The position numbers and the translations under genes were made by a program. Positions 9,083-34,300 of a DNA stretch of 44,320 nt are shown piece by piece (positions within the stretch are counted from its first letter, which is position 1; each line of letters opens with the position of its first letter). The notes beneath the pieces are model-generated. The model was not told the origin of the DNA. It was given only the letters and a program-made list of their open reading frames with translations, and did no database searches. Where the stretch lies: the NCBI GenBank assembly GCA_024695565.1, contig JAILHX010000084.1:1-44320 (forward strand), read 5' to 3'. The stretch comes from Saccharofermentans sp. Lineage in GTDB: Bacteria > Bacillota_A > Clostridia > Saccharofermentanales > Saccharofermentanaceae.

Positions 9083-9103
9083 TAATCTTGATTTGAGAGG
9101 TGA

Positions 9104-9345
9104 TATGTACAACCATTTGTACAGTGCTGCTGTACTTTTGCTGTACATATGCCCCTAAAAGCGCGATTTGTACAGCTGTTTGTACAGTACTGCCGCACAT
9201 TTGCTGTACAAATGCCCTCTAAAATGCGATTTGTACAAGTGCTTGTACAGCACTGCCGCACATTTGCTGTACAAATGCCCTCTAAAATGCGATTTGTACA
9301 GCTGTTTGTACAGCACTGCCGCACATTTGCTGTACAAACCGCCAC
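9104..9345. repeat. 63-bp tandem repeat array rich in TGTACA palindromes
   Basis: The gap from 9083 to 9488 holds no convincing gene. Three near-identical 63-bp units occupy 9166-9228, 9229-9291 and 9292 to about 9345 (the last one diverges at its end), preceded by a degenerate 62-bp unit at 9104-9165. Each unit carries TTTGTACA twice and then its reverse TGTACAAA; ATTTGTACAGC (9166-9176) can pair with GCTGTACAAAT (9203-9213) over 11 bp. Units 2 and 3 differ at only a few positions, showing recent duplication. The unit length divides by three, which opens long frames on both strands; these are treated as by-products. The role may be RNA structure at the 3' end of rdgB or a protein-binding array; neither is shown. 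Confidence 0.9.
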
Positions 9346-9385
9346 AGCAAGCAGGAATCAGGGCCGTTCATTATATTATTATTTA

Positions 9386-9414: not shown

Positions 9415-9488
9415 TGTCAGGCGCGTACAAATGTCCGCCGTAGGAGGTATAGTCCTCCCGCAAAATCTCGATGAAAGGTGATAACTTT

Positions 9489-9935
9489 ATGCCCCAGGAT
9501 AACCCTGAATATTATCTTGTCGATAAAAGAGTACTGCCTGAAGTCTTCATTAAGGTCATGGAGGTCAAACAGCGCCTTAATACCGGTGAATCAACATCGG
9601 TCAATGAGGCCGTAAGGAAGACCGGCCTGTCCAGAAGTGCTTACTATAAGTACAAGGATTCCGTCCTGCCTTTCTACGAGGCAGCAAGAGGCAAGAAGGT
9701 TACGCTTCTTCTCTCTGTCGAGAATTTCCAGGGCATCTTGTCCGAGATTATCCGAACTATCGCGGAATCACGCGCCAATATTCTGACCATCAATCAGAAT
9801 ATCCCGATCAACGGCCTTGCAGACATCTCAATCTCCATTGAGACCGTGTCAATGTATGGTACAGTTGACGACATAATCAACGATATCTCTAAGCTCGCCG
9901 GTGTGCGCAAGTGCATGGTGCTGAGCAGGGAATAA
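9489..9935 (+). CDS. ACT domain-containing protein (PheB/UPF0735 family)
   Basis: This small protein has a short N-terminal helix-turn-helix-like part (VNEAVRKTGLSRSAYYKYKD, about residues 29-48) and a C-terminal ACT domain (about 65-148, KVTLLLSVENFQGILSEIIR), the fold that binds amino acids in regulators of amino acid metabolism. Proteins of this family commonly sit just before homoserine dehydrogenase in Firmicutes, as here, 18 nt apart. An ATG at 9471 is in frame, but ATG 9489 has AAAGGTGAT 6 nt upstream and is preferred (148 residues). A role in sensing an aspartate-family or aromatic amino acid is inferred from the domain and neighbour; no ligand can be named. Confidence 0.87.
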   Translation: MPQDNPEYYLVDKRVLPEVFIKVMEVKQRLNTGESTSVNEAVRKTGLSRSAYYKYKDSVLPFYEAARGKKVTLLLSVENFQGILSEIIRTIAESRANILTINQNIPINGLADISISIETVSMYGTVDDIINDISKLAGVRKCMVLSRE

Positions 9936-9953
9936 TGAAAGGAACAGCAGGAA

Positions 9954-11138: not shown

Positions 11139-11168
11139 TCCCGGTTTTTCCAGGTTCTCGAAAAGTAT

Positions 11169-12782
11169 ATGGATAACATCAAGGTTTTTATTTGCGAAGA
11201 CGAAAGCATCGTGCGTGAAGGTTTGCGCGATATGATCCCGTGGGAGAAATACGGGTTCGAGTTCGTCGGAGATGCACCTGACGGTGAGATGGCGCTCCCC
11301 ATGATCCGCAAATTGAAGCCGGATGTGATCATTACTGACATTACGATGCCTTTTATGGATGGTCTCTCGTTATCGAGGATCGTCATGGGCGAGCTTCCGA
11401 ATACGAAGATAATCATCATCAGCGGCTACAGTGATTTCGAGTACGCCAGAAAAGCTATCGAACTGGGCGTCGAGCAGTATCTGTTAAAGCCCGTTACACG
11501 CGCCGACATGATAAAGGCCTTGGAAGGCATCAAGCAGAAGATCACTGAAGAATCCGAGCAGCAGAACTACATCAGCAAGTACGAGCAGGAGTTCAAGAAG
11601 TTTGAGAGATTCTCGCACAGGGCTTTTTTCGAGAAGCTCGTAGAAGGCTCACTATCAGTAGAAGATATCTACGAACAGGCGAACGAACTTCACCTGAATC
11701 TTAATGCCAACGGATTCAATCTCGTTATCTTCACGATCAGCGATGCAAAGCAGTCTGGTTACGCTGACGACGCTGCCAATGTAATGGAGAAACTGTTCAA
11801 CCACTTCATGCAGTATCCGGATTACATTCTGTTCAGATGCAACCTGTTATCCTATGCGGTGCTTATCAAGGGCGATTCCGACGTTTTGGCCGGGTTAGGT
11901 GACAGATGCGTTGACATGATCAGACAGCACTGTGAAGAAGCTGATTCTGACCTCGAATGGTATGCTGCCGTAGGTGTCCCGACTAACAGATTAAGCGGGA
12001 TCTCGCGCTGTTATGCTGATGCCAACAGGGCTTTTGCATACAGGCATTTATTCCCGGACAAGCATATATTCACATCAGAACTTTTCAAGACCGAGCAGAT
12101 AGCTCCGAGTCCCAAAGACCTTGATTCACTTGATGTTACGAAGTTAGATCCCATGATCATCAGAAACTTCGTGCGCACGGGAACTCTTGCCGAAGTCGGA
12201 TCATTTGCCGAAGAATATATTGCAAGCCTGGGAGCAATGGAGAATACTTTCTTATTCAGATACTATCTGCTCGTCAGCATCAGGGTCAATGTTGAACTCG
12301 CACTTCGTGATGACGGCATTGAGCAACCCGATATCAAGTATTCGCTGCCTTCTGTTGACATGGAGATCGATTCTGAAGAAGTCAGGTCAAGATTTGTCGG
12401 CATCCTTACAGAGGCCATAACTCTTCGCGATGCCGAGGCGATCAAGAGAAGCAGCGATATCATCGACAGCGCTTTGCGTTATATCGACAGTCACTATTCG
12501 GATGAGGATATATCGCTCGATTCCGTTGCTATCGCAAGCAATATCAGTGCCAATTATCTGTCTGCTTTGTTCAGCCAGAAGGTCGGTCTGTCATTCGTCG
12601 AATACGTTACCAAAAAGCGTATGGACAGGGCAAAGCAGCTGCTTAAAAAGACAGACAAGCGATCGGGCGAGATCGCGCTCGAAGTCGGATACAAGGACCC
12701 GAGATACTTCTCGTTCGTATTCAAGAAAAAGACAGGATGTACGCCCAGCCAGTACCGTAACGGAGAGTCTGAAGAAGAATGA
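11169..12782 (+). CDS. YesN-type response regulator with AraC-family output domain
   Basis: This is a cytoplasmic transcription activator of a two-component system. The receiver domain (about 1-125) has the acidic pocket E10-D11, the phospho-acceptor D57 in DVIITDITMPFMDG, and the conserved lysine in YLLKPVTRADM. A middle region of about 300 residues is of the kind usual in YesN-like proteins. The C-terminal 100 residues are an AraC-type double helix-turn-helix (ISANYLSALFSQKVGLSFVE and IALEVGYKDPRYFSFVFKKK). The ribosome binding site is weak. The stop overlaps the kinase start as ATGA. The probable target is the sugar importer operon 4 kb downstream, as in clostridial xylose and arabinose three-component systems. 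Confidence 0.92.
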   Translation: MDNIKVFICEDESIVREGLRDMIPWEKYGFEFVGDAPDGEMALPMIRKLKPDVIITDITMPFMDGLSLSRIVMGELPNTKIIIISGYSDFEYARKAIELGVEQYLLKPVTRADMIKALEGIKQKITEESEQQNYISKYEQEFKKFERFSHRAFFEKLVEGSLSVEDIYEQANELHLNLNANGFNLVIFTISDAKQSGYADDAANVMEKLFNHFMQYPDYILFRCNLLSYAVLIKGDSDVLAGLGDRCVDMIRQHCEEADSDLEWYAAVGVPTNRLSGISRCYADANRAFAYRHLFPDKHIFTSELFKTEQIAPSPKDLDSLDVTKLDPMIIRNFVRTGTLAEVGSFAEEYIASLGAMENTFLFRYYLLVSIRVNVELALRDDGIEQPDIKYSLPSVDMEIDSEEVRSRFVGILTEAITLRDAEAIKRSSDIIDSALRYIDSHYSDEDISLDSVAIASNISANYLSALFSQKVGLSFVEYVTKKRMDRAKQLLKKTDKRSGEIALEVGYKDPRYFSFVFKKKTGCTPSQYRNGESEEE

Positions 12783-14215
12783 CGAAGCCTAAAGAACTCT
12801 TTAAGGCTGATTCGATCAGGGGCAAGATGTCCCGTCTGCTCATGCAGATGTTTATCCCGATAATGCTGCTCTTCACGATCATCCTCGTAATGGTCCTGAC
12901 GCGTAATATCATGATCGCTTCAGTTAACGGCAACATCGCAGACGCATCGGGATTCAACCGTGAGTTCAAAGAAGAAGTTGACCTCGAGATGTATCTCTAC
13001 GTTACGGGATATAACGATGAACTTCCGTACGAAGACGTTGATTCCGCGAGAGAACTTGCCGAGAACCTCCTCGAGCGTACGCGGAACGATGACAGCCGCA
13101 AAGCCATGAAGAACGTTCTGATCCTCTGCGATAACTTAAGCCAGTACATGAAGGATATCGAGCAGACCGAACAGTACGATGAACGTATGCAGCAGCTCGA
13201 AAACAATATCTACGGCATAACCCAGCTCATCGAAGACAATTTCTATTCGTATCTATACCACGAAGCAGGCGAACTAGCGAGCATCCAGAAGCAGCTCGAC
13301 TTATGGCTCATGGCCGAGATCTCATTCGTTATTCTGGTCATCTTGGTCGTAACGCCTATCGTTCTGAAGCGCGCATTCTCACTCAGCAGAAGTATCACGG
13401 ATCCCATCATCGAGATGAACAGCCGTGTTGAAGCTATCGGTGACGGTGACTTAAGCGCCCATACGCCTGTTAAGACAGATGACAGGAACCTGGCGCTCCT
13501 GTCGATGGGTATCGAAGACATGGCTGAGAGATTAAGCAAGCAGATCGAGCTTAACCGCCAGGAACAGATCCATTTAAGAGAGACGGAGCTCTCGCTCATC
13601 CAGGCGCAGATCAATCCGCACTTCCTCTATAACACGCTCGATGCGATCGTCTGGCTCATAGAGAGCGGCAAGAACGACCAGGCAGAGCAGATGGTAACGA
13701 GCCTGTCGCAGTATTTCCGCTCATTCCTAAGCGACGGTAAGGAGATCGTTACGATAGCAGAAGAGACCAATCACATCAGAAGCTATCTTGAGATCCAGCA
13801 GGTCCGTTACAGGGACATCATGGAATACGAGATCAACGTCGATTCCGAGACTGAATTCTATAAGCTTCCGAAGCTGACGCTCCAGCCCCTTGTCGAGAAC
13901 GCCATCTATCACGGCTTGAAGCCGAAGCGCGGTAAGGGCATGATCTCAGTCATCGGAAAGACAGACGGTGATAAGATCGTTCTGACGGTTAAGGACACAG
14001 GCGCCGGAATGGACGGGGAACAGCTCGAGAATCTCAAGAACAAGATCAGGACAGAAGATGCAACGTCATTCGGACTTGTATCTGCATATAAGCGCTTGAA
14101 GCTCCTCTACGGAGAAGGGTTCGACTTCGATATCACAAGCGAAGCGGGCGCCGGCACAGCAATCACGATAAGTATTCCCAGAAAGGCAGACATTGATAAT
14201 GAAACGATTCTTTAG
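12779..14215 (+). CDS. YesM/LytS-type sensor histidine kinase
   Basis: This is a membrane sensor that phosphorylates the adjacent regulator. One membrane segment (about 18-45) precedes an extracytoplasmic, helix-rich domain (about 46-172), a second membrane segment (about 175-200), a HAMP linker (DPIIEMNSRVEAIGDGDLS), the His_kinase domain with phospho-acceptor H281 in QINPHFLYNTLD, and a HATPase domain with LQPLVENAIYHGL (N box) and DTGAGMD (G1 box). The 478-residue length is typical. The start at 12779 forms an ATGA overlap with the regulator gene. The outer domain is small and has no obvious sugar-binding fold, consistent with reading the state of the binding lipoprotein encoded next. Confidence 0.92.
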   Translation: MTKPKELFKADSIRGKMSRLLMQMFIPIMLLFTIILVMVLTRNIMIASVNGNIADASGFNREFKEEVDLEMYLYVTGYNDELPYEDVDSARELAENLLERTRNDDSRKAMKNVLILCDNLSQYMKDIEQTEQYDERMQQLENNIYGITQLIEDNFYSYLYHEAGELASIQKQLDLWLMAEISFVILVILVVTPIVLKRAFSLSRSITDPIIEMNSRVEAIGDGDLSAHTPVKTDDRNLALLSMGIEDMAERLSKQIELNRQEQIHLRETELSLIQAQINPHFLYNTLDAIVWLIESGKNDQAEQMVTSLSQYFRSFLSDGKEIVTIAEETNHIRSYLEIQQVRYRDIMEYEINVDSETEFYKLPKLTLQPLVENAIYHGLKPKRGKGMISVIGKTDGDKIVLTVKDTGAGMDGEQLENLKNKIRTEDATSFGLVSAYKRLKLLYGEGFDFDITSEAGAGTAITISIPRKADIDNETIL

Positions 14216-15185
14216 TCTTCTTTTGAGCATGGTGCTCGCCATAAACATAGCCGGCTGCACGATCAATAACGATCAGCCCCAGGATAAGGATCTCTTCGTA
14301 ATCGGTTTCTCGCAGGTCGGTTCCGAATCTGACTGGAGACTGGCCAACACCCAGTCAATGATCGAGACCTTCACGGAAGAAAAGGGCTATGAACTCCGCA
14401 TGGAAAATGCCAGACAGCGCCAGGACAACCAGTTTGCTGCCGTTCGTTCTTTTATCCTCGAAGACGTTGATTTCATCATCATCGCGCCCACGGTAGAAGA
14501 CGGCTGGGAGCCCGTTCTCAACGAAGTCCGTGAAGCTGGTATCCCCGTTATCATCATGGACCGTTCCGTCTCGGTTGACGATAAGGATCTCTATCTGACA
14601 AACATCGGTTCAGACTTCCTTACTGAAGGTAAGAAGGCTGTCGAGTGGCTCGAAAACGAGACTTCCGGCATGGCAGAAGACGACTCATTAAGGATCCTTC
14701 ATCTGCAGGGAACATATGGTGCTACGGCCCAGCTTTTGAGAACGAAAGCCCTTGAAGTCGCAGTAGCCCAGCACGAAGACTGGGAATTTGCCGCCCAGCT
14801 CTACGGTGACTTCACAGAAGCAAAAGCATACGAAGTCGTTACCGACTACTTAAGGACTGATAAGGATATCGATGTCATCTACAGCGAGAACGACAACATG
14901 ACCTTCGGTGCTATGCGTGCCCTTGACGATGCAGGCATAACATACGGCAAGAACGGCCAGGTCAAGATAATATCTTTCGATGCCACGAAGAAGGCTCTCC
15001 AGTTATGCCTCGAAGGCAAGATAGACCTCTGTGTCGAGTGCAATCCCTTACACGGTGAAGACGTCGAAAAGCTCATCACCATGTACCGCAACGGCGAAGA
15101 CATCCCCAAGCACGTTTACGTCGAAGAGACGATCTTCACACAAAAGGATCTGACGCAGGATTTCATTGATTCAAGGGAATATTAA
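14199..15185 (+). CDS. Sugar-binding lipoprotein, third component of the sensor system
   Basis: This is a periplasmic-binding-protein-like lipoprotein of the ribose/galactofuranose (YtfQ-like) class. The signal peptide ends in the lipobox-like IAGC; the mature protein begins with FVIGFSQVGSESDWRLANT and carries DGWEPVLNEVREAGIPVIIMDR, which matches the importer binding protein encoded at 16715 almost word for word. It overlaps the kinase gene and has no transporter partner of its own, so it probably presents sugar occupancy to the kinase, like XylFII in clostridial XylFII-LytS-YesN systems. ATG 14199 is chosen. A TTG at 14193 has better spacing to AAAGG (14182-14186) and would add two residues. 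The stop TAA abuts the TTA of the convergent araR stop with no gap. Confidence 0.9.
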   Translation: MKRFFSLLLSMVLAINIAGCTINNDQPQDKDLFVIGFSQVGSESDWRLANTQSMIETFTEEKGYELRMENARQRQDNQFAAVRSFILEDVDFIIIAPTVEDGWEPVLNEVREAGIPVIIMDRSVSVDDKDLYLTNIGSDFLTEGKKAVEWLENETSGMAEDDSLRILHLQGTYGATAQLLRTKALEVAVAQHEDWEFAAQLYGDFTEAKAYEVVTDYLRTDKDIDVIYSENDNMTFGAMRALDDAGITYGKNGQVKIISFDATKKALQLCLEGKIDLCVECNPLHGEDVEKLITMYRNGEDIPKHVYVEETIFTQKDLTQDFIDSREY

Positions 15186-16247
15186 TTACCCGCTGTTCCT
15201 CACATGAAGTTTCCATTTGACCGGTTCAGGGCTGTATGACTTGTGTTCTATGGCTGAGATTACTGCTTCCGTTGTCTTATTTACAAGCTCTTTATCGCTG
15301 TGTCCCAATGATGTTATGTTTGCGGGACCTGAAGAGTAGTAGCTGTTCTCGAAGCTTACGACAGCGAGATCTTTTGGAACTGATATTCCGATTCTCTCAA
15401 GGAGCTGGATGAGCCTATATGCAATCTCGTCGTTATGGCAGATTACTGCGGTGCAGTCGGGATCTATCTCGTCGATAAATGTCTGAAGGATCTCGTTATC
15501 ACCTTTGACAATCTTGTTGCGGTCACGGCCCGTGATGAAGAAGGCGTTATGTTCGTCTGATGTGATGCCGTATTCTTTGCATGCTTCGATATAGCCTTTG
15601 TAGCGGGCAAGTCCTCTTGAATCGTCACAGCGGAAGATGCAGCATGTCTTATTGTGACCTTTCTCTTTGAGATGAGATACGAGCATTACTGCGCCCTGGT
15701 AATCGTCTTCTTCGATACATAAACAATTCTTCGTCTCTTTATAAGATGAATAGAGATAAACGACAGGAATGCCTTTGCGCCTGATATCTTCTATAAGTGC
15801 GATGTTCGGGTTTGGAATGATGTTCGAAGACGGTTCGATAAGGATTGCTGCAGGCAGGAGTGCAAGTGCTTCTTCCAGTGCTTTCCGCTCTTTTGCAAAT
15901 GAGCAGTCCGTACCGTAGCAGATAAGGTCGAATCTGTTTTCCTTTAGAGCGCTCTTGATCCCTGAAATGAATTCGGGTCTTACGTATTCGAATTTGTCAC
16001 TGGTAATAAACACAATAGTATTGTTGAGTTTAGCAGAATCGTCTGCGATGTAAGAACCGCTTCCGCGCTTTTTAACTATCAGACCTTTTTCAACAAGCAC
16101 TTTAAGAGCCGATCTGATCGTCTGGCGGCTGCATGAATATTCCTCGCAGAAAGATTCTTCCGTAGGCAGCTTAAGGATACCGTCTGCGCGCATCCGGCGC
16201 AGATCAGATTCCATCTTATATGCGATCTGCAGGTATTTGTCTGCCAT
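15186..16247 (-). CDS. araR: AraR-type transcriptional repressor (GntR HTH plus LacI-type sensor domain)
   Basis: The N-terminal 70 residues form a GntR-family winged helix-turn-helix (TEESFCEEYSCSRQTIRSAL and LIVKKRGSGSYI). Residues from about 80 to the end are a LacI/PBP1-type sugar-binding domain (IVFITSDKFEYVRPEFISGI, then DPDCTAVICHNDEIAYRLIQ and DLAVVSFENS). This architecture is that of AraR, which represses arabinose genes and is released by L-arabinose. The frame opens at 16328, but ATG 16247 is chosen because AAGGA lies 7 nt upstream and the domain starts there. It lies back to back with the importer operon across a 467-bp control region and faces the sensor operon. The effector is inferred from the araD neighbour. 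Confidence 0.85.
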   Translation of the reverse strand: MADKYLQIAYKMESDLRRMRADGILKLPTEESFCEEYSCSRQTIRSALKVLVEKGLIVKKRGSGSYIADDSAKLNNTIVFITSDKFEYVRPEFISGIKSALKENRFDLICYGTDCSFAKERKALEEALALLPAAILIEPSSNIIPNPNIALIEDIRRKGIPVVYLYSSYKETKNCLCIEEDDYQGAVMLVSHLKEKGHNKTCCIFRCDDSRGLARYKGYIEACKEYGITSDEHNAFFITGRDRNKIVKGDNEILQTFIDEIDPDCTAVICHNDEIAYRLIQLLERIGISVPKDLAVVSFENSYYSSGPANITSLGHSDKELVNKTTEAVISAIEHKSYSPEPVKWKLHVRNSG

Positions 16248-16714
16248 CTCAAAGTCCTTATAAACAGTGGATTTCTTAGTTTGATTATAAGTAATAAGGG
16301 GTGCGAACTTCATAACCGATAAATGCAAAAATCTTTAGATTTCACGGGCCCCGAAAATTTACATGACGGATTTTTTACCGCCTTTTTTACCGAAGCAGGA
16401 AATTATTTATTTGTCCTTTTTGGCAATTTGACAATTTGTTACATCTGTTCAAAGAGGGCTCGAAAATCGGGCGAAAAGATTTTCGACAATTCCTCAAAAG
16501 AAAACAAACAAAACAGACAAGAAATCTTTACATTCCCATAAAGTTGTACGCTTTGATCCTAAAACTTCCGAATTTGTATTTAGGCACAATTACCATTCTG
16601 CAAACCCCATATGAGATTCGTGGAACGGCCGGCAGGAGAGTGGTTAAGTGTAGCCAGAAGCACAGGAAAGGCCTGTGGTCCAAGAAATTCATTATGAGAA
16701 ATGAGGTAAGAAAC
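16248..16714. promoter_or_regulatory. Control region between araR and the sugar importer operon
   Basis: This 467-bp gene-free stretch separates divergent araR and the importer binding protein. Visible signals: a 9-bp perfect inverted repeat TCGAAAATC (16460-16468) and GATTTTCGA (16478-16486); the direct repeat TTTTTTACCG at 16371-16380 and 16383-16392; a tandem CAATTTG at 16424-16430 and 16432-16438, containing TTGACA at 16428-16433; and a small hairpin CAGG-CCTG near 16662-16674. These are candidate sites for the adjacent AraR and response regulator. No near-consensus -35/-10 pair could be settled, and a 72-residue open frame inside the region has no family resemblance. The long leader may also carry untranslated RNA structure. 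Confidence 0.5.
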
Positions 16715-17758
16715 ATGAAAAAATTCATGAAGGCTCTGATGGCTGGTACTCTCGCAGTTTCAGTTTTGAGTATGGCAGCTTGCACCACAACAACTACTAC
16801 AACAACAGCTGGTGGCGGCGATGCTACAACAAAGGCTCCCGATGATACAACAGCAGCTACCGAAGAGGCTACAGAGGGTGGCAGCGACGGTGATCTCATT
16901 AAGGTTGCTATCATCAATAACGATCCTAACGAGTCCGGTTATCGTACAGCTAACGACAGAGACATGAAGGAAACATTCACAGAAGAGAATGGTTATGAAG
17001 CTTATTTCTACTACAGCCTTAAGAACGAAGATCAGATCGCTGCAGCAGAGAAGTACATTCAGGACGAAGTTGACTATTTACTTATAAGCGCCGCTGGCAC
17101 CAGTGGTTGGGACGGAGTTCTTGAGGACGCTCAGGAAGCAGGCATCAAGGTTATCCTCTTCGACAGAACGATCGATGCAGACGAGAGCCTCTATGAAGCT
17201 TCTATCGTATCCGACATGGCTAAGGAAGGTCAGCAGGCAGTTGACTGGCTCGCATCCCAGGGCTTAGACGAGTACAAGATCATCCACATCCAGGGTGTTA
17301 TGGGTTCATCCGCTCAGATCGGCCGTTCAGGCGCACTCGATGAGATGGTTGCAGCTAATGACAACTGGAGCATCGTAACACAGCAGACAGCAGAGTGGTC
17401 AGAAGAAGCTGCTCAGCAGATCGTTCAGTCCGTTATCGACTCTGGCGAGACATTCAACGTTATCTATGCAGAGAATGACAACATGGCTAAGGGTGCAGTT
17501 GCTGCTCTCGATAAGGCTAACATCTCTCACGGCGTAGGCAAGGACGTTATCATCATCGGCTTCGACTGCAACACATGGGCACTCGAGGAACTCCTCGCTG
17601 GTAACTGGAACTATGACGGTCAGTGCAATCCTTTCCAGGCTGCTTACATTGACGACATCATCAAGAATGGCGTTACAACAAAGGTAGTCATCATGGACGA
17701 GAAGGGCTTCGACGCTACAACAATCACTCAGGAAGACGTTGACAACTACGGAATCTGA
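16715..17758 (+). CDS. YtfQ-like sugar-binding lipoprotein of the pentose ABC importer
   Basis: This is the substrate-binding component, anchored outside the membrane. The signal peptide MKKFMKALMAGTLAVSVLSM ends at an AAC lipobox, followed by a run of eight threonines and an acidic, Thr/Ala-rich linker to about residue 60. The binding domain starts at LIKVAIINNDPNESGYRTAN and contains SGWDGVLEDAQEAGIKVILFDR, characteristic of the YtfQ (galactofuranose) branch that also includes arabinose binders. The frame can be extended upstream, but ATG 16715 with GAGG 8 nt before it is chosen. It is followed by a strong hairpin (17822-17856) and then the ATPase gene. Linkage to araR and araD points to L-arabinose or an arabinofuranose, which is inference. 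Confidence 0.93.
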   Translation: MKKFMKALMAGTLAVSVLSMAACTTTTTTTTAGGGDATTKAPDDTTAATEEATEGGSDGDLIKVAIINNDPNESGYRTANDRDMKETFTEENGYEAYFYYSLKNEDQIAAAEKYIQDEVDYLLISAAGTSGWDGVLEDAQEAGIKVILFDRTIDADESLYEASIVSDMAKEGQQAVDWLASQGLDEYKIIHIQGVMGSSAQIGRSGALDEMVAANDNWSIVTQQTAEWSEEAAQQIVQSVIDSGETFNVIYAENDNMAKGAVAALDKANISHGVGKDVIIIGFDCNTWALEELLAGNWNYDGQCNPFQAAYIDDIIKNGVTTKVVIMDEKGFDATTITQEDVDNYGI

Positions 17759-17821
17759 TATTTGGTCCCCCGCTTAAGCACTTTACCTAACAACAGCCAA
17801 ATATAAGATTTTGAGACATTT

Positions 17822-17856
17822 AATGTGCGATGCGATGACTCATCGCATCGCACATT
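17822..17856 (+). promoter_or_regulatory. Perfect 16-bp intercistronic hairpin inside the importer operon
   Basis: AATGTGCGATGCGATG (17822-17837), a 3-nt loop ACT and CATCGCATCGCACATT (17841-17856) form a perfect 16-bp stem. No T-run follows (ATTGTCAAATG), so it is not a standard terminator. It lies between the binding-protein gene and the ATPase gene, where such stems commonly protect the upstream mRNA from 3' decay and keep the binding protein more abundant than the membrane parts. Confidence 0.75.
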
Positions 17857-17905
17857 ATTGTCAAATGCATAAAAAGAAACAGTTAATTACTGGAGGAGGA
17901 ACACC

Positions 17906-19417
17906 ATGAAGGAAGGCGCAGTTTTGGAGATGCGCGGGATATGCAAATATTTCCCGGGCGTGCGCGCTCTTGAGAAGGTAGATTTCACTCTAAGAGAAGG
18001 TGAGATCCATGCTCTGATGGGCGAGAACGGTGCAGGAAAATCAACACTCATCAAGGTGTTGACCGGCGTATATCCAATGGATGGCGGAGAAGTCACATTA
18101 TCCGGCAGCCCCATACACATCAAATCGCCGCAGGATGCACAGAATACAGGTATTGCTACGGTTTACCAGGAGATTACTCTCTGTCCTAACCTTACGGTAG
18201 CTGAGAATATGTACATCGGTCGTACAAGCGGTCCTCTTACAAACTGGAAAAAGATGAACAACTCTGCGGGCAAGCTATTAGAAGAACTCGGGATCCCCGT
18301 AAGCCCCACAGAGCAGCTCGGCAATTGCTCGATCGCAGTTCAGCAGATGGTAGCCATTGCCCGTGCGGTAGATATGGATTGTAAGGTTCTTATCCTCGAC
18401 GAGCCTACATCCTCACTTGATGAACAGGAAGTTCAGAAACTCTTCAATCTGATGCGCGACCTTAAGAGCAAGGGCGTCGGAATCATATTCGTAACACATT
18501 TCCTTGAGCAGGTTTATGAAGTCTGTGACCGCATTACCGTTCTGCGTGACGGTAAGCTCGTAGGCGAATACATAATTGAAGACCTGCCCAGAGTGCAGCT
18601 CGTATCCAAGATGCTCGGTAAGGATTTTGATGACATGGCCGACATCAAGAGCGATTCTGCAGCCGAAAGCATAGATTTAAACGGTACCCCCGTTTATCAG
18701 GCAATTAACCTTTCCGGAACGACTGGAATAAAGCCGTTCGACTTTGAGATCCACAAGGGCGAAGTTAACGGCTTTACCGGTCTTCTGGGTTCCGGCAGAT
18801 CAGAGAGCGTACGTGCGATTTTCGGTGCTGACAGAGTAACCGGCGGAAAGGTCATGATCGACGGCAAGCCCGTTAAGATCAGAAAGCCTCTTGATGCAAT
18901 GAGGCACGGTATCAGCTATCTGCCTGAAGACAGAAAGCTTGACGGTATCGTAGGCGATCTCTCAGTAAGAGACAACATCATCCTCGCATACCAGGTCATG
19001 AAGGGTTTCTTCAGACCGTTTTCGAGAGCACAGGCAGAGAAATTTGCCGATGAATATATCAAGCTCCTCAATATTAAGACAGCATCTTCTGAAACGCCGA
19101 TCAAGTCTTTGTCCGGCGGCAACCAGCAGAAGGTAATCCTCGCAAGATGGCTTCTTGCAGACCCCGTATATCTGATCCTCGACGAGCCTACGAGAGGTAT
19201 CGACGTAGGAACCAAAGTAGAGATTCAAAAGCTTGTATTGAAGCTTGCTTCGGAAGGGAAGAGCGTTACGTTCATTTCTTCCGAGATAGACGAGATGATC
19301 CGCACATGTTCGCGCCTTATCGTCATGCGTGACGGCAAGGTCGTAGGCGAACTCAAAGGAGACGATCTCAACCAGAATAAGATAATGGCAACGATTGCCG
19401 GAGGTGAATCCAAATGA
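17906..19417 (+). CDS. Sugar ABC importer ATPase with two nucleotide-binding domains (MglA/YtfR-like)
   Basis: This is the energy-coupling subunit on the inner membrane face. Domain 1 (about 1-245) has an intact Walker A GENGAGKST, Walker B VLILDEPTSSLD and a switch histidine (FVTHFLE). Domain 2 (about 255-500) has the degenerate Walker A GLLGSGRSE usual in sugar importers of this class, the signature LSGGNQQK, and Walker B YLILDEPTRGID. The length of 503 is typical. GGAGGAGG lies just before the ATG. The stop overlaps the next permease start as ATGA. Together with two different permeases this is the ytfR-ytfT-yjfF order. Confidence 0.95.
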   Translation: MKEGAVLEMRGICKYFPGVRALEKVDFTLREGEIHALMGENGAGKSTLIKVLTGVYPMDGGEVTLSGSPIHIKSPQDAQNTGIATVYQEITLCPNLTVAENMYIGRTSGPLTNWKKMNNSAGKLLEELGIPVSPTEQLGNCSIAVQQMVAIARAVDMDCKVLILDEPTSSLDEQEVQKLFNLMRDLKSKGVGIIFVTHFLEQVYEVCDRITVLRDGKLVGEYIIEDLPRVQLVSKMLGKDFDDMADIKSDSAAESIDLNGTPVYQAINLSGTTGIKPFDFEIHKGEVNGFTGLLGSGRSESVRAIFGADRVTGGKVMIDGKPVKIRKPLDAMRHGISYLPEDRKLDGIVGDLSVRDNIILAYQVMKGFFRPFSRAQAEKFADEYIKLLNIKTASSETPIKSLSGGNQQKVILARWLLADPVYLILDEPTRGIDVGTKVEIQKLVLKLASEGKSVTFISSEIDEMIRTCSRLIVMRDGKVVGELKGDDLNQNKIMATIAGGESK

Positions 19418-20541
19418 CAGCAACCGATAAAAAATTGAATTCCGGTAATACCGTCAAAGAATTCATCAGCAAGATAGTACATAATCAGCTGTTTATTCCG
19501 CTTGCGGCATTATTGCTCCTGGTACTGTTCAATCTCATCGCTGATCCTTCATTCTTTAAGATCGCACTTGAGCCGAGCAGCGGAGGCAACCTCATCTTGT
19601 CAGGCAACCTGATCTCAATCGTCGATAATGCTTCTGAGCTCGCTATCCTCGCAATCGGAATGACTCTCGTTACGTCCGCTTCAGGCGGTCAGGATATTTC
19701 CGTAGGTTCTGCTATCGCCATTGCCGGATCAGTCGTATTAAGGATCGTAAAAGTATATTCCACAGATATTTCTAACGGTCAGTTCTTCGGCGTCATCGTA
19801 GGTTCCTTTGTACTCTGCGCTGTTGTGGCAGCTCTTTTCGGAGCCTTCAACGGAGCGCTGGTAGCTTACTTCAAGATCCAGCCGATGGTTGCAACGCTCA
19901 TCCTGTTTACCGCAGGCCGTTCAATCGCAGCATGGATCAATAACAACGACAACATCTCGATCAACGATACGCGTTTCGGTTATTTCGGTAACTTCATTCC
20001 CGGTATTCCGATTCCGACCCCGGTATTCATTACCGCTATCTGCCTCGCAGTGATCGCTCTTGTCCTTAAATTCACAAACTTGAGACTCTACTCACAGGCA
20101 GTAGGTATCAATTCTTCATCTTCAAGACTTAACGGTATCAACCCGAAAACCATCAAGCTCCTGACATTCATCATCCTGGGTGTCTGCGTAGCTGTATGCG
20201 GATTCATTAAAGTATCACGTACATCCTCCATTACATACTCGGTCATCGCAAACAACATCGAGATGGATGCGATCCTCGCAGTTGCTCTTGGTGGTAACAA
20301 CTTAGGCGGCGGTAAGTTCAACATGACAGCATCCGTTATCGGTGCATATGTTATCCAGTTCCTTACAACAACGCTTTATAAGTTCAAGGTAAGTTCAAGT
20401 GCAATCTCTGCTTACAAAGCAGTAGTTGTCATTCTTCTCATAATCATGTCTGCTCCTGTCGTACGTAAGTGGATCAATGATATGAAGAACAAGAGACAGG
20501 CAGCCAAGACCTCGTCTCAGGTAGGAAAGGAGAATGTCTGA
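19414..20541 (+). CDS. Sugar ABC importer permease 1 (YtfT-like)
   Basis: This is an inner-membrane permease of the ribose/galactofuranose BPD_transp_2 family. It has about nine to ten hydrophobic segments and the family hallmark LAILAIGMTLVTSASGGQDISVGS, followed by GAFNGALVAYFKIQPMVATL, YSQAVGINSSSSRLNGI and MDAILAVALGGNNLGGG. The 375 residues exceed most paralogs because of the N-terminal extension before the first helix. GGAGG is 9 nt before the ATG, which overlaps the ATPase stop. It is predicted to pair with the next permease as a heterodimer. Confidence 0.93.
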   Translation: MTATDKKLNSGNTVKEFISKIVHNQLFIPLAALLLLVLFNLIADPSFFKIALEPSSGGNLILSGNLISIVDNASELAILAIGMTLVTSASGGQDISVGSAIAIAGSVVLRIVKVYSTDISNGQFFGVIVGSFVLCAVVAALFGAFNGALVAYFKIQPMVATLILFTAGRSIAAWINNNDNISINDTRFGYFGNFIPGIPIPTPVFITAICLAVIALVLKFTNLRLYSQAVGINSSSSRLNGINPKTIKLLTFIILGVCVAVCGFIKVSRTSSITYSVIANNIEMDAILAVALGGNNLGGGKFNMTASVIGAYVIQFLTTTLYKFKVSSSAISAYKAVVVILLIIMSAPVVRKWINDMKNKRQAAKTSSQVGKENV

Positions 20542-20542
20542 C

Positions 20543-21595
20543 ATGTCAGTTAATTCTAATGCTCTGGGAAGTAACAAGCTTAAGCGCCGTACTTCTCTTA
20601 CAGATACAAATCTGCTCCTGATAATCACGGTCGCAGTATTTGTCATCATGTATATCTGCGCTGTCGTTTTCCTTAAGAAAGGATTTACGAAGCCTCAGAT
20701 GTTCTTCAATATCTTAAATGAGAATGCTTCGCTTCTCGTTCTCTCCTGCGGTATGACGCTCGTCATGATCACCGGCGGTATCGATATCTCCGTAGGTCAG
20801 GTAACATCACTCGTTTGTATGGCATGTGCCGTACATCTTGAGCACAACAATGGTAACGTAATCACATCAATGCTCATCGCATTGGGAATCGGTCTGGCAT
20901 TCGGTGTCGTTCAGGGATTCCTCGTAGCTTACCTTGAGTTCCAGCCATTCATAGTAACTCTTGCAGGCTTGTTCTTTGCAAAAGGCATGACGACCATAAT
21001 AAGCAGCGACCGTATCAGTATCACTAACGAGGCTTTCCTCGCTCTGTGCAAGACAGAGGTTACGATTCCTTTCTTAGGTTCAGTCAACAAAAAAGGAATA
21101 TTCGTACCGGCCAGCATGGAGATCGGTGTTGTAGTTGCGTTAGTGATCGTTGTCCTGCTGTTCTGCCTGCTCAGATGGACCAAGCTCGGCCGTAACTTCT
21201 ACGCTGTAGGCGGTAACAACCAGAGCGCCAACATGCTCGGTATCAACGTTAAGCTCACCAAGTTCCTCGCACATGTCCTTTGCGGTCTCTGCGCAGGAAT
21301 CGGCGGATATGTATTCTTCCTGCATGCATGCTCAGGTTCTCCTCTGCACGCACAGGGAGCTGAGATGAACGCGATCGCTTCATCCATCATCGGCGGAACA
21401 CTGCTCTCAGGCGGTGTAGGTAACATTGTCGGCACGCTTTTCGGAGTCCTGTCACTGTCAACGATCAAGAATATCGTTACTTCATTGGGACTCGAAGATC
21501 CATGGTGGACAAACATCACTGTAGCGGCCATGCTCTGTCTTTTCCTCCTTATCCAGAGCATTATCCTCGCACGCAAGAATAAAAACAAAAAATGA
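20543..21595 (+). CDS. Sugar ABC importer permease 2 (YjfF-like)
   Basis: This is the second BPD_transp_2 permease, homologous to but distinct from permease 1. Visible hallmarks are LLVLSCGMTLVMITGGIDIS, VVQGFLVAYLEFQPFIVTLA, NFYAVGGNNQSANMLGINV and SSIIGGTLLSGGVGNIVG. An ATG at 20534 is only 1 nt from AGGAG (20528-20532), too close. ATG 20543, 10 nt after the site and just past the previous stop, is the better start (350 residues). A 71-bp AT-rich gap to the kinase gene follows, with no clear terminator. Confidence 0.93.
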   Translation: MSVNSNALGSNKLKRRTSLTDTNLLLIITVAVFVIMYICAVVFLKKGFTKPQMFFNILNENASLLVLSCGMTLVMITGGIDISVGQVTSLVCMACAVHLEHNNGNVITSMLIALGIGLAFGVVQGFLVAYLEFQPFIVTLAGLFFAKGMTTIISSDRISITNEAFLALCKTEVTIPFLGSVNKKGIFVPASMEIGVVVALVIVVLLFCLLRWTKLGRNFYAVGGNNQSANMLGINVKLTKFLAHVLCGLCAGIGGYVFFLHACSGSPLHAQGAEMNAIASSIIGGTLLSGGVGNIVGTLFGVLSLSTIKNIVTSLGLEDPWWTNITVAAMLCLFLLIQSIILARKNKNKK

Positions 21596-21666
21596 GTTAC
21601 AATATCTTTTGTTGATGTTTAAATCAATTGTTTTTCTTGCAATTTTCAGACAGAAAGGTAGACGCT

Positions 21667-23223
21667 ATGGATCTGACAAAGTGTGCTTTAGGTATTGAAT
21701 TAGGTTCCACAAGAATCAAGGCAGTTCTTATCGATGAGAACCATCTCCCGGTCGCATCAGGCGATCACGAATGGGAGAACCAGCTCGTTAACGGTATATG
21801 GACATATTCGGAAGATATGATCCACACCGGAATTCAGAAGTGCTACGCGGCATTGAAGGCTGACGTAATGGAGAAGTTCGGCGTAAAGCTTACGACAGTA
21901 GGCGGTATCGGAATCTCTGCCATGATGCACGGCTACCTGCCTTTTGATAAAGATGGCAACAGACTTGCCGAATTCAGGACCTGGCGCAATACGATCACTG
22001 GTGAAGCAGCAGAGAAGCTCACAGAGCTTTTGAACTTCAACATCCCGCAGAGATGGAGCATCGCTCACTTCTATCAGGCTATCTTAAACAACGAATCTCA
22101 TGTTAAGGATGTAGCATTCCTTACTACTCTTGCAGGTTATATCCACTGGACTCTGACAGGCGAGAAGGTAATGGGTGTCGGCGAGGCATCAGGCATGTTC
22201 CCGATCGACAGTTCAACCTGCGATTACAACGAGGGCATGGTCCAGAAGTTTAACAGCCTTACGGGACTTGATCTGAGGAGTCTTCTTCCTAAGGTAGTCT
22301 CAGCAGGCGATTATGCAGGCAGACTCACAGAGACAGGCGCTAAGTTCCTCGATCCTGAGGGAGATCTTGAGGCCGGTATTCCTTTGGCACCCTGCGAAGG
22401 AGATGCGGGAACAGGTATGGTCGCAACCAATTCAGTACGTGTCAGAACAGGCAACGTATCTGCAGGCACATCCGACTTTGCCATGATCGTCACCGATCAC
22501 GATCTCGGAGTTCACCGCGAGATCGATATGGTTACAACACCTGACGGCGCCGCTGTCGCAATGGTTCACTGCAATAACTGCACATCAGATATCAATGCGT
22601 GGGTAAATCTCTTCTCTGAGTTTGCTGCTCTCATGGGCGCTTCATACAGCAAGGGCGAGCTGTTCACAAAGCTCTTCCAGGTTGCAGCAGAAGGTGATCC
22701 TGACTGCGGCGGCCTTATGTCCTATAACTATTTCTCAGGCGAAGGCGTAACTGACCTTGATGAGGGCAGACCTGTTTTCGCGAGAATGCCGGACGCATCA
22801 TTTACTATCGCAAACTTCATGAGAACACATCTCTATTCCGCTCTTGCAACACTCAAGATCGGTATGGATATCCTCCAGAGCGAAGAGCAGGTCAAGATCG
22901 ACAAGCTCTTAGGCCACGGTGGTTTCTTCAAGACTCCCGAAGTCGGCCAGAGAATGCTCAGTGCAGCAGTCAATGCTCCCGTATCTGTCATGAAGACAGC
23001 AGGCGAGGGCGGCCCCTATGGAATGGCACTTCTCGTTGCATATATGCTTAACCGTGACGAAGGCGAGACCTTGCCTGATTATCTCGATAACAAGGTATTT
23101 GCTGATGCCGAGTGTTCCACTATAATGGCAGACAGTGCAGGCGTCGAAGGTTTTGCAAAGTTCCTTGCAGGCTACGTTAAGGCGCTGCCCGTTGAGAAGA
23201 CTGCTACGGAGGTATTCGGTTAA
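21667..23223 (+). CDS. FGGY-family sugar kinase, probable ribulokinase (AraK-like)
   Basis: It is predicted to phosphorylate L-ribulose to L-ribulose-5-phosphate, the substrate of the next gene product. The N-terminal ATPase-fold motif is [19 protein letters not shown], and the second domain has [13 protein letters not shown] and [12 protein letters not shown]. The 518-residue length fits FGGY kinases. It looks unlike classical E. coli-type AraB and more like the non-orthologous clostridial ribulokinases (AraK type); this rests on recollection and on the araD neighbour. ATG 21667 is chosen over an in-frame ATG at 21628 because AAAGG lies 9 nt upstream and the fold begins there. Its stop TAA shares one base with the araD start (TAATG). 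A xylulokinase-like specificity remains possible. Confidence 0.82.
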
Positions 23224-23912
23224 TGCTTGAAGATCTTAAGAAACTCGTTTGTGAGGCAAATCTCCTTTTGCCCAAGCACGGGCTTGTAACTTTTACATGG
23301 GGCAACGTCAGCGGCATCGACCGCGAACAGGGTCTCGTTGTTATCAAACCTTCCGGTGTTGAGTATGATCACATGACTGCTGATGACATGGTAGTCGTAG
23401 ATCTCGACGGCAAGGTCGTCGAAGGCAAGTGGAAGCCGTCATCTGACACAGCCACACACGTTGTACTCTACAAGGCATTCCCCAATATCGGAGGCGTCGT
23501 ACATACACATTCACGCTGGGCTACAAGCTTTGCCCAGGCCGGCATCGCCATCCCCGCCATGGGAACGACACAGGGCGACTATTTCTACGGAGACATCCCT
23601 TGCACACGCCCCATGACCGATGAAGAGATCAAGGGCGAGTATGAGAAGGAGACAGGCAACGTTATCGTTGAGACGTTCGCAGGTCTCGATCCCGATGCAA
23701 TCCCCGCCGTCAATGTTTATTCCCACGGTCCGTTCTGCTGGGGCACCGATCCCATGAACGCCGTTCACAATGCGGTCGTCATGGAAGAAGTCGCATTCAT
23801 GGACTATCACGCGCTGATGCTCAATCCCGAGCACAGGGACATGCAGCAGACGCTTCTTGATAAGCACTACTTAAGAAAGCACGGAGCAAACGCTTACTAC
23901 GGACAAGGCTGA
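23223..23912 (+). CDS. araD: L-ribulose-5-phosphate 4-epimerase
   Basis: This zinc-dependent class II aldolase-like enzyme converts L-ribulose-5-phosphate to D-xylulose-5-phosphate, which enters the pentose phosphate pathway. Zinc ligands H94 and H96 in VVHTHSRW and H168 in VYSHGPF, and the catalytic aspartates D75 (SSDTATH) and D119 (QGDYFYG), align with the known E. coli residues with a shift of one to three. The GNVSG phosphate-binding loop and IKPSG are intact. The 229-residue length is typical. The start overlaps the kinase stop by one base, with GGAGG 10 nt upstream. The stop lies inside a rho-independent terminator. Paralogs UlaF and SgbE share the fold; arabinose context favours AraD. 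Confidence 0.93.
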
Positions 23913-23933
23913 TGGAAATCAGCCTTTTTCTTT
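23905..23933 (+). terminator. Rho-independent terminator of the pentose operon
   Basis: AAGGCTGAT (23905-23913) pairs with ATCAGCCTT (23918-23926), followed by a T-rich tract TTTTTCTTT. The stem begins inside the last codons of araD and includes its stop codon. Confidence 0.9.
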
Positions 23934-23934
23934 G

Positions 23935-23986
23935 GGTGTGTACAGATCCTGTTGCGTTCGGATTATGGTGTGTACAGATCCTGTTG
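23935..23986. repeat. 20-bp direct repeat after the araD terminator
   Basis: GGTGTGTACAGATCCTGTTG occurs at 23935-23954 and again, identical, at 23967-23986, a 32-bp period. A third, degenerate copy (GTGTTCAGATTC) is visible near 24000-24011 and runs into the hairpin elements that follow. Confidence 0.9.
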
Positions 23987-24008
23987 TTCCGATTCTGTTG
24001 TGTTCAGA

Positions 24009-24305
24009 TTCCCGTTAAAATTCCCGTTTACTAACGGGAAAATGAACGGGAATTTTGCTTTAGGCGGCTGTTTTTCCGTTCAAAATCCCGTTTACTAACG
24101 TGAATTCAAACGGGGTTTTGGTCAGAGAGGGCTGCGATACGTTTATCAGTACGTTTCCTAACGTATTTAAAAACGCATTCCGCCTGCCTGGCAAAAAACT
24201 ATGGTAAAAAGTATGGTCCGGGCCATAGTTTTTACCATAGAAATGCCTCCAAGTCCTCGAATACTATGGCAAAAAGTATGGCTTATACCATAGTTTTTAC
24301 CATAG
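24009..24305. repeat. Five consecutive quadripartite hairpin elements (word, word, reverse word, reverse word)
   Basis: The 535-bp gap between araD and purD has no plausible gene but holds five elements. E1: TTCCCGTT at 24009-24016 and 24021-24028, then AACGGGAA at 24033-24040 and 24045-24052. E2: TCCGTT 24075-24080, TCCCGTT 24086-24092, AACGTGA 24097-24103, AACGGGG 24109-24115. E3: TACGTTT at 24138-24144 and 24150-24156, then AACGTAT 24160-24166 and AACGCAT 24172-24178. E4: CTATGGTAAAAAGTATGG 24199-24216 against CCATAGTTTTTACCATAG 24223-24240. E5: CTATGGCAAAAAGTATGG 24264-24281 against CCATAGTTTTTACCATAG 24288-24305. Each arm is itself a doubled word. Function is unknown. Confidence 0.88.
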
Positions 24306-24382
24306 TTTCAGCCTGGGCGGCACATTTGCACTGTAAGAACAGGGACTTTTCGCAAACCTTGCTTGAACAGGAGATTCTTAAG

Positions 24383-24412
24383 TTCAAAACAGCACCCCCA
24401 GTGTGCTAAAAT
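24383..24412 (+). promoter_or_regulatory. Probable purD promoter (extended -10)
   Basis: TGCTAAAAT (24404-24412) is an extended -10 box; TTCAAA at 24383-24388 gives an 18-nt spacer. The predicted leader is about 30 nt and contains the GGAGG site at 24434-24438 used by purD. Confidence 0.5.
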
Positions 24413-24447
24413 ACATAAGTTATTTCACTCATTTGGAGGAACAGTAA

Positions 24448-25701
24448 ATGAAGGTACTTGTTGTAGGCGGCGGCGGAAGAGAGCATGTTATTTGTTGGAA
24501 ACTCAAGCAGGATCCCAGGGTAACGGATCTGTACTGCGCTCCCGGTAACGGCGGTATCGCTTCAATCGCTACTTGTGTAGATATTAAGGCTACGGATATT
24601 GACGGCATGGTCGAATATGCGAAGAAAGAGCAGTTTGATCTCGTTTTCGTTGCTCCCGACGATCCGCTCGCAATGGGTATGGTCGATAAGATGGAAGAGG
24701 CAGGCTTAAGATCCTTCGGTCCTAAGGCGAATGCTGCGATCATCGAAGGCTCAAAGGCTTTCTCCAAGCAGCTTATGAAGAAATATTCGATCCCTACTGC
24801 AAAGTACGAGATTTTCACAGAAGAACAGAAAGCTCTTGATTATCTCGAGACGCAGCCTATGCCTATCGTTATTAAGTGTGACGGCTTAGCTCTTGGTAAG
24901 GGCGTTATCATTGCCCAGACACTTGATGAAGCTAAGCAGGCAGTCAGGGACATGATGGAAGACAAGAAGTTCGGTTCTGCCGGTTCAACGATAGTAATCG
25001 AAGAATGCATGACAGGTCCCGAGCTCACGGTGCTTGCTTTCTCAGACGGCAACACATGTGTTCCGATGGTATCTTCAAGAGACCACAAGAGAGCTTATGA
25101 CCACGACGAAGGCCTTAACACGGGCGGCATGGGCGCTGTTACACCCGGTGCCGACATGACAGATGAACTTAAGGCACGTATCCAGAACAAGATAATCACA
25201 CCTACTGTCGAAGCGCTCAAGACTGAGGGCAGACCGTTCAAGGGTGTTATCTACTTCGGTCTCATGCTTACACCTGAAGGACCTAAGGTAGTTGAGTACA
25301 ATGCTCGTTTCGGAGACCCTGAGGCGCAGGCTGTTTTGCCGCTCCTCGAAAACAGTCTCCTCGATATAGTTGATGCAGTTATCGACGGCAAGCTCGACCA
25401 GATCGACTTTAAGTGGAAGAATAAGTGCTCATGCGTTGTCGTAATGGCTTCCGGCGGATATCCGCAGAGCTATGCAAAGGGTTATGAGATCACAGGTATC
25501 GACACCTGCGGCAAGATCGTGTTCCAGGCAGGCACTGCGCTTAAGGACGGCAAGCTCGTTACGAGCGGCGGACGTGTTCTCTGCGTATACGATGAGGCAG
25601 ATACCCTTGATGAGGCTATCGACGGCGCATATGAAGGTGTAGCGAAGATCTCTTTCCAGGATATGCATTACCGTCACGATATAGGAAGGACACTCGGCTG
25701 A
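24448..25701 (+). CDS. purD: Phosphoribosylamine--glycine ligase (GAR synthetase)
   Basis: This ATP-grasp enzyme catalyses the second step of purine synthesis, joining glycine to phosphoribosylamine. Family motifs are VLVVGGGGREHVICWKL at the N-terminus, VKCDGLALGKGV in the ATP-grasp domain, RDHKRAYDHDEGLNTGGMGA, and VEYNARFGDPEAQAVLPLL. The 417-residue length is normal. GGAGG lies 9 nt before the ATG. It is isolated from other purine genes here; the next gene, nadD-yqeK, starts 3 nt after its stop, so the two are probably co-transcribed. Confidence 0.97.
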   Translation: MKVLVVGGGGREHVICWKLKQDPRVTDLYCAPGNGGIASIATCVDIKATDIDGMVEYAKKEQFDLVFVAPDDPLAMGMVDKMEEAGLRSFGPKANAAIIEGSKAFSKQLMKKYSIPTAKYEIFTEEQKALDYLETQPMPIVIKCDGLALGKGVIIAQTLDEAKQAVRDMMEDKKFGSAGSTIVIEECMTGPELTVLAFSDGNTCVPMVSSRDHKRAYDHDEGLNTGGMGAVTPGADMTDELKARIQNKIITPTVEALKTEGRPFKGVIYFGLMLTPEGPKVVEYNARFGDPEAQAVLPLLENSLLDIVDAVIDGKLDQIDFKWKNKCSCVVVMASGGYPQSYAKGYEITGIDTCGKIVFQAGTALKDGKLVTSGGRVLCVYDEADTLDEAIDGAYEGVAKISFQDMHYRHDIGRTLG

Positions 25702-34042: not shown

Positions 34043-34294
34043 AGACCGATTTAGTGTCTGACCGAAGGCCGATTCCGCATGGTACGAAAAAATGATGAAA
34101 CGAGTTGTTTTCATGCACTGTTTCGTCACAAAAGGCGTGAAAGTGACGTAGGAATGCGAAAAACACCTGTTTTCGTGAATGTTTCGTCACTCGAGTTCTG
34201 TATTAAATCGTCGAAAAAAGCATGAAAAAAATACAGAAAACCGTAGATTCCTGTATTTTTTCGGGGGGCGAAAACGCAAGCAAAAAATACAGAA
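34034..34294. repeat. Hairpin-rich, word-repeating intergenic region
   Basis: The 326-bp gap between the polytopic membrane protein gene and putP has no credible gene. It opens with an imperfect duplication, TCTGATTGAAGACCGATT (34034-34051) and TCTGACCGAAGGCCGATT (34057-34074). TTTCGTCAC then occurs at 34121-34129 and 34182-34190, with reverse GTGACG at 34143-34148. Next, TTCTGTATT (34196-34204) pairs with AATACAGAA (34230-34238), and CTGTATTTTTT (34251-34261) pairs with AAAAAATACAG (34282-34292) over 11 perfect bp. The putP terminator lies at the right end. Confidence 0.82.
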
Positions 34295-34300
34295 CTGCAC

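What the first reader, a model, noticed from the sequence alone, without database searches (positions are those of the whole stretch)
23932..24312. Five back-to-back quadripartite hairpins with changing words
Five adjacent elements follow one grammar, word-word-reverse word-reverse word, with very short spacers, yet three different words are used: CCCGTT-type (E1, E2), ACGTTT (E3), and CTATGG with an A-run (E4, E5). Because each arm is doubled, each element can fold in two registers. E1 and E2 share the loop GTTTACTAAC; E4 and E5 share a right arm exactly. This is not a normal dispersed repeat, since architecture is conserved and sequence is not. I know no named element with this rule. It could be RNA processing structures, multi-site protein targets, or scars of a local template-switching process.
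Basis: seen in the sequence. Interest (0 to 1): 0.78.

Follow-up and report, generated by a model that had tools for sequence, protein, structure and literature searches.

The report
Species-specific arrays of repeated DNA words
Between two genes of a rumen bacterium lie strings of short DNA words repeated forwards and backwards at regular steps; relatives carry strings built the same way, often with other words, which suggests fast-changing docking sites for DNA-binding proteins.

Summary
Five word-word-reverse-reverse elements lie at 24008-24308, centres 62-65 nt apart. "Not a dispersed repeat" is wrong: the same three words (CCCGTT, ACGTTT, CTATGG) occur together in another genome of the genus (G058) between different genes; word positions differ at 2 of 79, others at 31 of 126 (p 9e-6).

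The window holds a second array at 9097-9340 (63-nt unit) and probably a third near 34060-34300. In relatives the gap behind rdgB often carries an array with another word (12 of 19 by eye).

In genome G009 the word TGTATCGAAA (140 copies, control 2) forms dispersed modules, most often of eight alternating sites at near-constant spacing. In seven of them words are 98% and spacers 49% identical. Unit lengths of 15 word families lie at 52, 62-65 or 73-74 nt, near 5, 6 and 7 helical turns. One G009 array has array-free orthologous sites in 3 of 9 relatives.

Best reading: arrays of phased sites for sequence-specific DNA-binding proteins, spread by an unknown route, with fast word turnover. Reader protein, mobilising enzyme and benefit are unknown. 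REP membership is not met; MITE is undecided.

The parts
23905..23930 (+). Terminator-like hairpin and T-run behind the class II aldolase gene; the arrays start just beyond it
   Evidence: Read; a terminator-like site upstream of the array detected
23935..23986 (.). Two exact copies of GGTGTGTACAGATCCTGTTG, 32 nt apart
   Evidence: family D7
24008..24053 (.). E1, quad of word CCCGTT (w-w-w'-w')
24073..24120 (.). E2, degenerate second quad of CCCGTT; with E1 about eight words, unit 64 nt
   Evidence: below the threshold
24137..24179 (.). E3, quad of word ACGTTT
   Evidence: matches G058
24194..24240 (.). E4, quad of word CTATGG
   Evidence: matches G058
24260..24308 (.). E5, second quad of CTATGG; with E4 eight words, unit 65 nt
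   Evidence: matches G058
9097..9340 (.). Second array, word TTTGTACAGC, about four units of 63 nt, between rdgB (Ham1 family) and an ACT-domain gene; the second reverse word of the quad is weak or missing
   Evidence: only two palindrome peaks; orthologous gap compared
34060..34300 (.). Probable third array, words CTGTATTTTTT and CGAAAAAA, between convergent genes
   Evidence: six copies of CGAAAAAA; unit length not determined

Best explanation
The elements belong to a class of dispersed intergenic arrays in this genus. Each short word is probably one site for a sequence-specific DNA-binding protein. Sites are grouped in modules, most often eight in the best-studied family, either as w-w-w'-w' quads 62-65 nt apart or as w/w' pairs with a 52- or 73-74-nt unit, so that repeated units face the same side of the double helix. 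A species uses its own set of words at several loci; between species the words are replaced, at least once in place. Arrays come and go between genes, so they probably spread as small non-autonomous insertions, perhaps by the protein that binds the words. Shown: architecture, dispersal, word conservation, clustering of unit lengths, array-free orthologous sites for one array. Inferred: protein binding, mobility, and that the specificity of the protein drives the word change.
For: Same three words together at another locus in G058: word positions 2 of 79 changed, others 31 of 126, Fisher p 8.8e-6; the ACGTTT quad alone gives p = 1. G009: TGTATCGAAA 140 copies, reversed control 2; of the 100 places listed 88 lie in clusters, 12 are single. 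Of 16 G009 loci read (chosen by an exact hairpin, plus one), 10 have 8 words, 3 have 10, the others 9, 5 and 2; 6 of the 10 share the spacing 27,26,27,24,27,26,27, the other 4 differ by 1 nt at one or two steps. Seven modules: words 98.0%, spacers 48.8% identical. Exact hairpins: TGTATCGAAAAC in 2 of 85 genomes (22 in G009, 1 in G063), ACGGACACAAA in 1 of 85, CTATGG quad in 1 of 85. Unit lengths of 15 word families lie at 52, 62-65, 73-74; 0 of 200,000 random sets fit 10.5 as well. Array A1 of G009: both flanks but no array in 3 of 9 relatives (G063, G067, G074). Orthologous array with TCAGGC in L009 and TACGGC in L010, each with leftover words of the other kind.
Against: No binding protein or transposase was identified. 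Y1 transposase (PF01797) has no match in G002, G003, G005, G009, G011, G058 or G077, and none of ten neighbouring proteins scanned is a transposase. Copies have no sharp ends and no target duplication could be read. The seven modules were chosen partly by their word score, which raises word identity. The pitch inside a quad is 12 nt, not 10.5. Segments of the phase test were picked by eye and 11.0 fits slightly better than 10.5. Where the word changes inside a composite array the step is 62-63 nt at the two borders in the window and one of two in G058, but 83 at the other, 88.5 in G022 and 78 at the second G058 locus. Copy number in the window's own genome is unknown.
Confidence: 0.56

Rival explanations
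1. Neutral scars: tandem duplication and template switching between inverted arms make and homogenise the words locally, without function.
For: Arm homogenisation by template switching is described in print (starts of abstracts listed, e.g. PMC8604942, PMC7202029); words within an element agree; mosaic word states in L009 and L010.
Against: It cannot keep words alike across unlinked loci while spacers diverge, nor between two species at different loci. It does not predict near-constant spacer lengths or clustered unit lengths.
Confidence: 0.14
2. RNA elements: the arrays are transcribed and act as hairpins for termination, processing or protection of mRNA.
For: Strong folding of E1, E4 and E5. 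Of 26 G009 arrays with >=6 words, 16 lie between co-directional and 7 between convergent genes by mechanical ORF calls.
Against: Separate stems need not share one sequence in direct orientation, yet the words of a module do. Three of the 26 G009 arrays lie between divergent genes. A terminator-like site is already present beside 5 of 14 TGTATCGAAA arrays and the window's E array, though not the 9-kb array; no background rate was measured. No Rfam match in the window.
Confidence: 0.14
3. Fixed chromosomal sites, such as insulators or domain boundaries, bound by architectural proteins; gain and loss occur by deletion, not transposition.
For: Clustered unit lengths and word conservation; the gap behind rdgB is reused by different words in many species.
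Against: Copies sharing about 330-416 aligned bases lie on different contigs of G009, which suggests copying; array-free orthologous sites with both flanks.
Confidence: 0.25

Closest known systems
REP, BIME and REPIN elements
   Same: Dispersed intergenic palindromes, neighbouring units in opposite orientation, some families species-specific, mostly downstream of genes (abstract of PMC3733652)
   Different: No Y1 transposase in at least seven array genomes; several different words in one genome; modules of many evenly spaced sites
MITEs, e.g. BrickBuilt of Porphyromonas gingivalis, a MITE holding a minisatellite
   Same: Small intergenic, multi-copy, species-limited element with internal repeats (abstract of PMC4596501)
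   Different: BrickBuilt repeats 23 nt without spacers; here inverted words with spacers of near-constant length; no defined ends or target duplication
Uptake sequences (DUS/USS), from recall
   Same: Species dialects of about 10 bp, often as inverted pairs near terminators
   Different: Here the one word counted has 140 copies, 88 of the 100 listed in clusters, and one genome uses several words
Operator or centromere iterons, e.g. heptads of the omega repressor of pSM19035, from recall
   Same: Short sites in direct or inverted orientation in regular arrays
   Different: Dispersed on a chromosome at many loci; the protein is unknown

Membership tests
REP/BIME (RAYT-associated) | RAYT (Y1 transposase) in the genome | tested here: not met
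   PF01797 in 21 of 85 genomes of the genus, but in none of G002, G003, G005, G009, G011, G058, G077, which carry arrays
REP/BIME (RAYT-associated) | GTAG or CGTC tag at the foot of the hairpin | not tested
   No systematic scan was run
REP/BIME (RAYT-associated) | Dispersed intergenic palindromes in many copies | tested here: met
MITE | Discrete insertion with empty orthologous sites | tested here: met
   One array: A1 of G009, 3 of 9 relatives with both flanks and no array; the difference is about 50 nt longer than the eight-word module
MITE | Terminal inverted repeats | tested here: inconclusive
   First and last words are inverted, but so are the inner ones; copies share flanks of different length
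MITE | Target-site duplication | tested here: inconclusive
   No clear duplication at A1
MITE | Mobilised by a transposase of a partner element | not tested
   Only ten proteins beside TGTATCGAAA arrays were scanned; none is a transposase
Intrinsic terminators | GC-rich hairpin followed by a T-run, ending a transcript | tested here: inconclusive
   Quads carry A/T runs; a separate terminator-like site lies beside 5 of 14 TGTATCGAAA arrays and the E array; no RNA data
Known structured RNAs (Rfam) | Match at the gathering score | tested here: not met
   0 matches in the whole window
Uptake sequences | One genome-wide word, mostly as single or paired copies spread over the genome | tested here: not met
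   Several words in one genome; 88 of the 100 listed TGTATCGAAA copies lie in clusters

The most novel reading that the evidence does not exclude
An unnamed class of nucleoprotein arrays: several, typically eight, sites phased on the helix and read by a fast-evolving family of DNA-binding proteins whose specificity turns over from species to species, so that all words of an array are rewritten together on a partly shared scaffold, a bacterial counterpart of rapidly changing recognition systems.
Probability: 0.32. Interest if true: 0.88.

Novelty: new variant of a known kind. Interest (0 to 1): 0.72.

Why it matters
Dispersed palindromes in bacteria are usually defined by one conserved sequence. 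Here geometry is what stays, while the repeated word changes between species and between loci. If each word has its own reader, the arrays give a natural series for studying how a DNA-binding protein and all its sites change specificity together. They also offer a simple handle, the eight-word module, to fish out the protein.

Tried and rejected
Rfam: nothing in the window. Strict exact four-word scans of relatives' loci found little (close group: 1 hit at k = 6, 0 at k = 7-8; mid group 0; far group 3 at k = 6; shuffles 0); approximate word counting replaced it. A RAYT origin was rejected for the genomes named. An ORF beside a TGTATCGAAA array, first taken for a possible transposase, reads as hisS (my identification). 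Phage or plasmid origin: no TGTATCGAAAAC or ACGGC-type hairpin in viral contigs; 41 contigs with a single hit each of a 17-base CTATGG pattern, which I take as chance, without a control; no blastn match of the E array in plasmids or of the 9-kb array in phages. The exact TTGTACAG hairpin of the 9-kb array was found in 0 of 85 genomes. Other subclades: in 20 fetched loci 17 have no gap behind rdgB and 3 hold what reads as coding DNA. The ACGGC pattern has hits in 18 of 85 genomes, but its reversed control gives up to 3 per strand count, so only G009 (35), G002 (16), G003 (6) and G011 (6) stand clearly above it.

Rows dropped: the comparison of TGTATCGAAA modules began with 14 candidates; 5 were out of register and 2 more shared flanks with another copy, leaving 7. 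The unit-length test kept 21 of 30 segments (best period at least 3.5 sd above the mean), collapsed to 15 word families. Among the 9 left out, L004 (45 nt) and L019 (tops 82, 61, 52) do not support the clustering; L231 gives 72, the others 62, 62, 62, 63, 52 and, for E1-E5 combined, 65. In shuffled G009 intergenic DNA 6.8 arrays of at least 6 words still appear against 26 real ones, and 32.2 of at least 4 against 55, so some weak arrays are chance. For array A2 of G009, 9 relatives were fetched and 7 printed: none has the TGTATCGAAA array, but the gap differs in length and content, at least three show a CCGTCAA/TTGACGG pair, and it is not a clean empty site. For A1, G013 lacks the array and also the neighbouring right flank, so it is not counted as empty.

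Full report
Observation. The window segment 23932-24312 lies between a class II aldolase gene (23223-23912) and purD (24448-25701; named from its sequence, recalled). It holds five hairpin elements of the form word-word-reverse-reverse. E1, E4 and E5 are strong; E2 and E3 are degenerate. They exceed shuffled controls. Centres of E1, E3, E4 and E5 are 127, 62 and 65 nt apart; E2, placed by eye, splits the 127 into 64 and 63.

More in the window. At 9097-9340, behind rdgB, a second array repeats TTTGTACAGC with a 63-nt unit; its palindromes are weaker (two peaks only). Near 34060-34300, between convergent genes, lies a probable third.

Relatives. The window's genome is not held. A purD scan gave 80 loci, of which 30 have purD 94-97% identical. 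Of 19 loci in which both flanks of the rdgB gap were found, 12 carry by eye an array, mostly with its own word (L005, L022 and L079 share one); four have a gap of 31-121 nt, two hold a gene, one is doubtful. Five further loci with both flanks added one array. Upstream of purD, L002 and L012 have no array; L003 and L004 have other inverted words (by eye). Counting approximate 8-mers in mixed orientation, arrays of at least six words number 3 in the window (shuffles 0.2), 7 in the close loci (0.0), 26 in 800 kb of G009 (6.8), 6 in the mid group (0.8) and 3 in the far group (2.6).

Dispersed families. In G009 the word TGTATCGAAA has 140 copies against 2 for the reversed control; of the 100 places listed, 88 are in clusters and 12 single. 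Of 16 G009 loci read, 10 have 8 words in strict +-+-+-+- order, 3 have 10, the others 9, 5 and 2. The spacing 27,26,27,24,27,26,27 is exact in 6 of the 10; the rest differ by 1 nt at one or two steps. In seven modules words are 98.0% and spacers 48.8% identical after orientation; modules were picked by word score, so the word figure is somewhat flattered, the contrast is not. The exact hairpin of this word occurs in 2 of 85 genomes of the genus (22 in G009, 1 in G063). ACGGACACAAA is confined to G077 (1 of 85). TACGGC-type quads come by eye as two quads, eight words, in the 7 loci read from G002, G003 and G011, and as three or four quads in several G009 loci.

The window's own words. A CTATGG quad pattern is found in 1 of 85 genomes, G058. 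There the same three words lie together between a PfkB-type kinase and mraZ-rsmH (named from their sequence, recalled), in another order and 81-85% identical. Word positions differ at 2 of 79, other positions at 31 of 126 (p 8.8e-6; CTATGG 0 of 40 against 17 of 75, CCCGTT 0 of 24 against 9 of 23, ACGTTT 2 of 15 against 5 of 28, p = 1). G058 has a further CTATGG quad in the interval where G009 carries its array A2. In G022 an eight-word array with TTCCGG aligns with E1/E2 including the spacer (73% over 79 nt, E = 0.006), as if the word had been rewritten on the same scaffold.

Unit lengths. For 15 word families the unit lies at 52, 62-65 or 73-74 nt, near 5, 6 and 7 turns of B-DNA; 0 of 200,000 random sets fit 10.5 as well. 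The segments were picked by eye, families may be related, and 11.0 fits slightly better. Direct 7-mer distances in intergenic DNA peak at 64-65 in the window, at 64, 52 and 73 in the first 400 kb of G009, and at 62-63 and 74 in the close loci; the mid and far groups have lower peaks elsewhere, though 51-52 is among them. Between quads of different words the step is 63 and 62 nt in the window and 62 at one border in G058, but 83 at the other, 88.5 in G022 and 78 at the second G058 locus, so phase across a word change is not a rule.

Insertion. Array A1 of G009 is absent, with both flanks present, in G063, G067 and G074; G013 lacks it but its right flank is elsewhere; G005, G014 and G069 have another inverted word there, G022 direct repeats, G017 CGTCAC words (9 relatives, by eye). 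A2 is absent in the 7 relatives printed, without a clean empty site. Copies sharing about 330-416 aligned bases on different contigs suggest copying. No clear ends, target duplication or transposase were found. Of ten proteins beside TGTATCGAAA arrays, six match a Pfam family above its cut-off, one only below, three none; none is a transposase.

Mechanism. Conserved words with divergent spacers of near-constant length, direct as well as inverted identity, and clustered unit lengths fit recognition of double-stranded DNA by a protein. They fit RNA stems or local template switching alone less well. In-place word change (L009 against L010) suggests that sites follow a changing reader.

Literature. 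The outlines with abstracts of PMC4596501 and PMC3733652 were read; other papers were seen in listings only. In these five searches I saw no description of such arrays; the library lacks most subscription journals.

Noticed in passing
window 11140-24431: In many close relatives the DNA homologous to window 9367-11140 is followed directly by purD; the window has about 13 kb (sugar transporter, kinase, aldolase and more) in between.
   Followed up: no
window 17821-17857: A perfect 17-bp inverted repeat (TAATGTGCGATGCGATG, loop of 3) upstream of the sugar ABC transporter gene, perhaps an operator.
   Followed up: no
L001 2042-4195 and L056 1676-4198: The gap behind rdgB holds what reads as a gene for a repeat-rich, probably secreted protein in place of an array (by eye).
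   Followed up: no
L172 18700-18960 (G009:C1 798700-798960): TAGAGCCA/TGGCTCTA direct repeats with 22-23 nt pitch, which look like an insertion-sequence end of the IS21 type (recalled).
   Followed up: no
L240 (G022): Direct repeats of a GCGTTGGTTTCC-like word at the site where G009 carries array A1.
   Followed up: no
G009, single copies listed: Twelve of the 100 listed TGTATCGAAA copies stand alone, more than the reversed control of 2 genome-wide; they might be decayed arrays or single operators.
   Followed up: no
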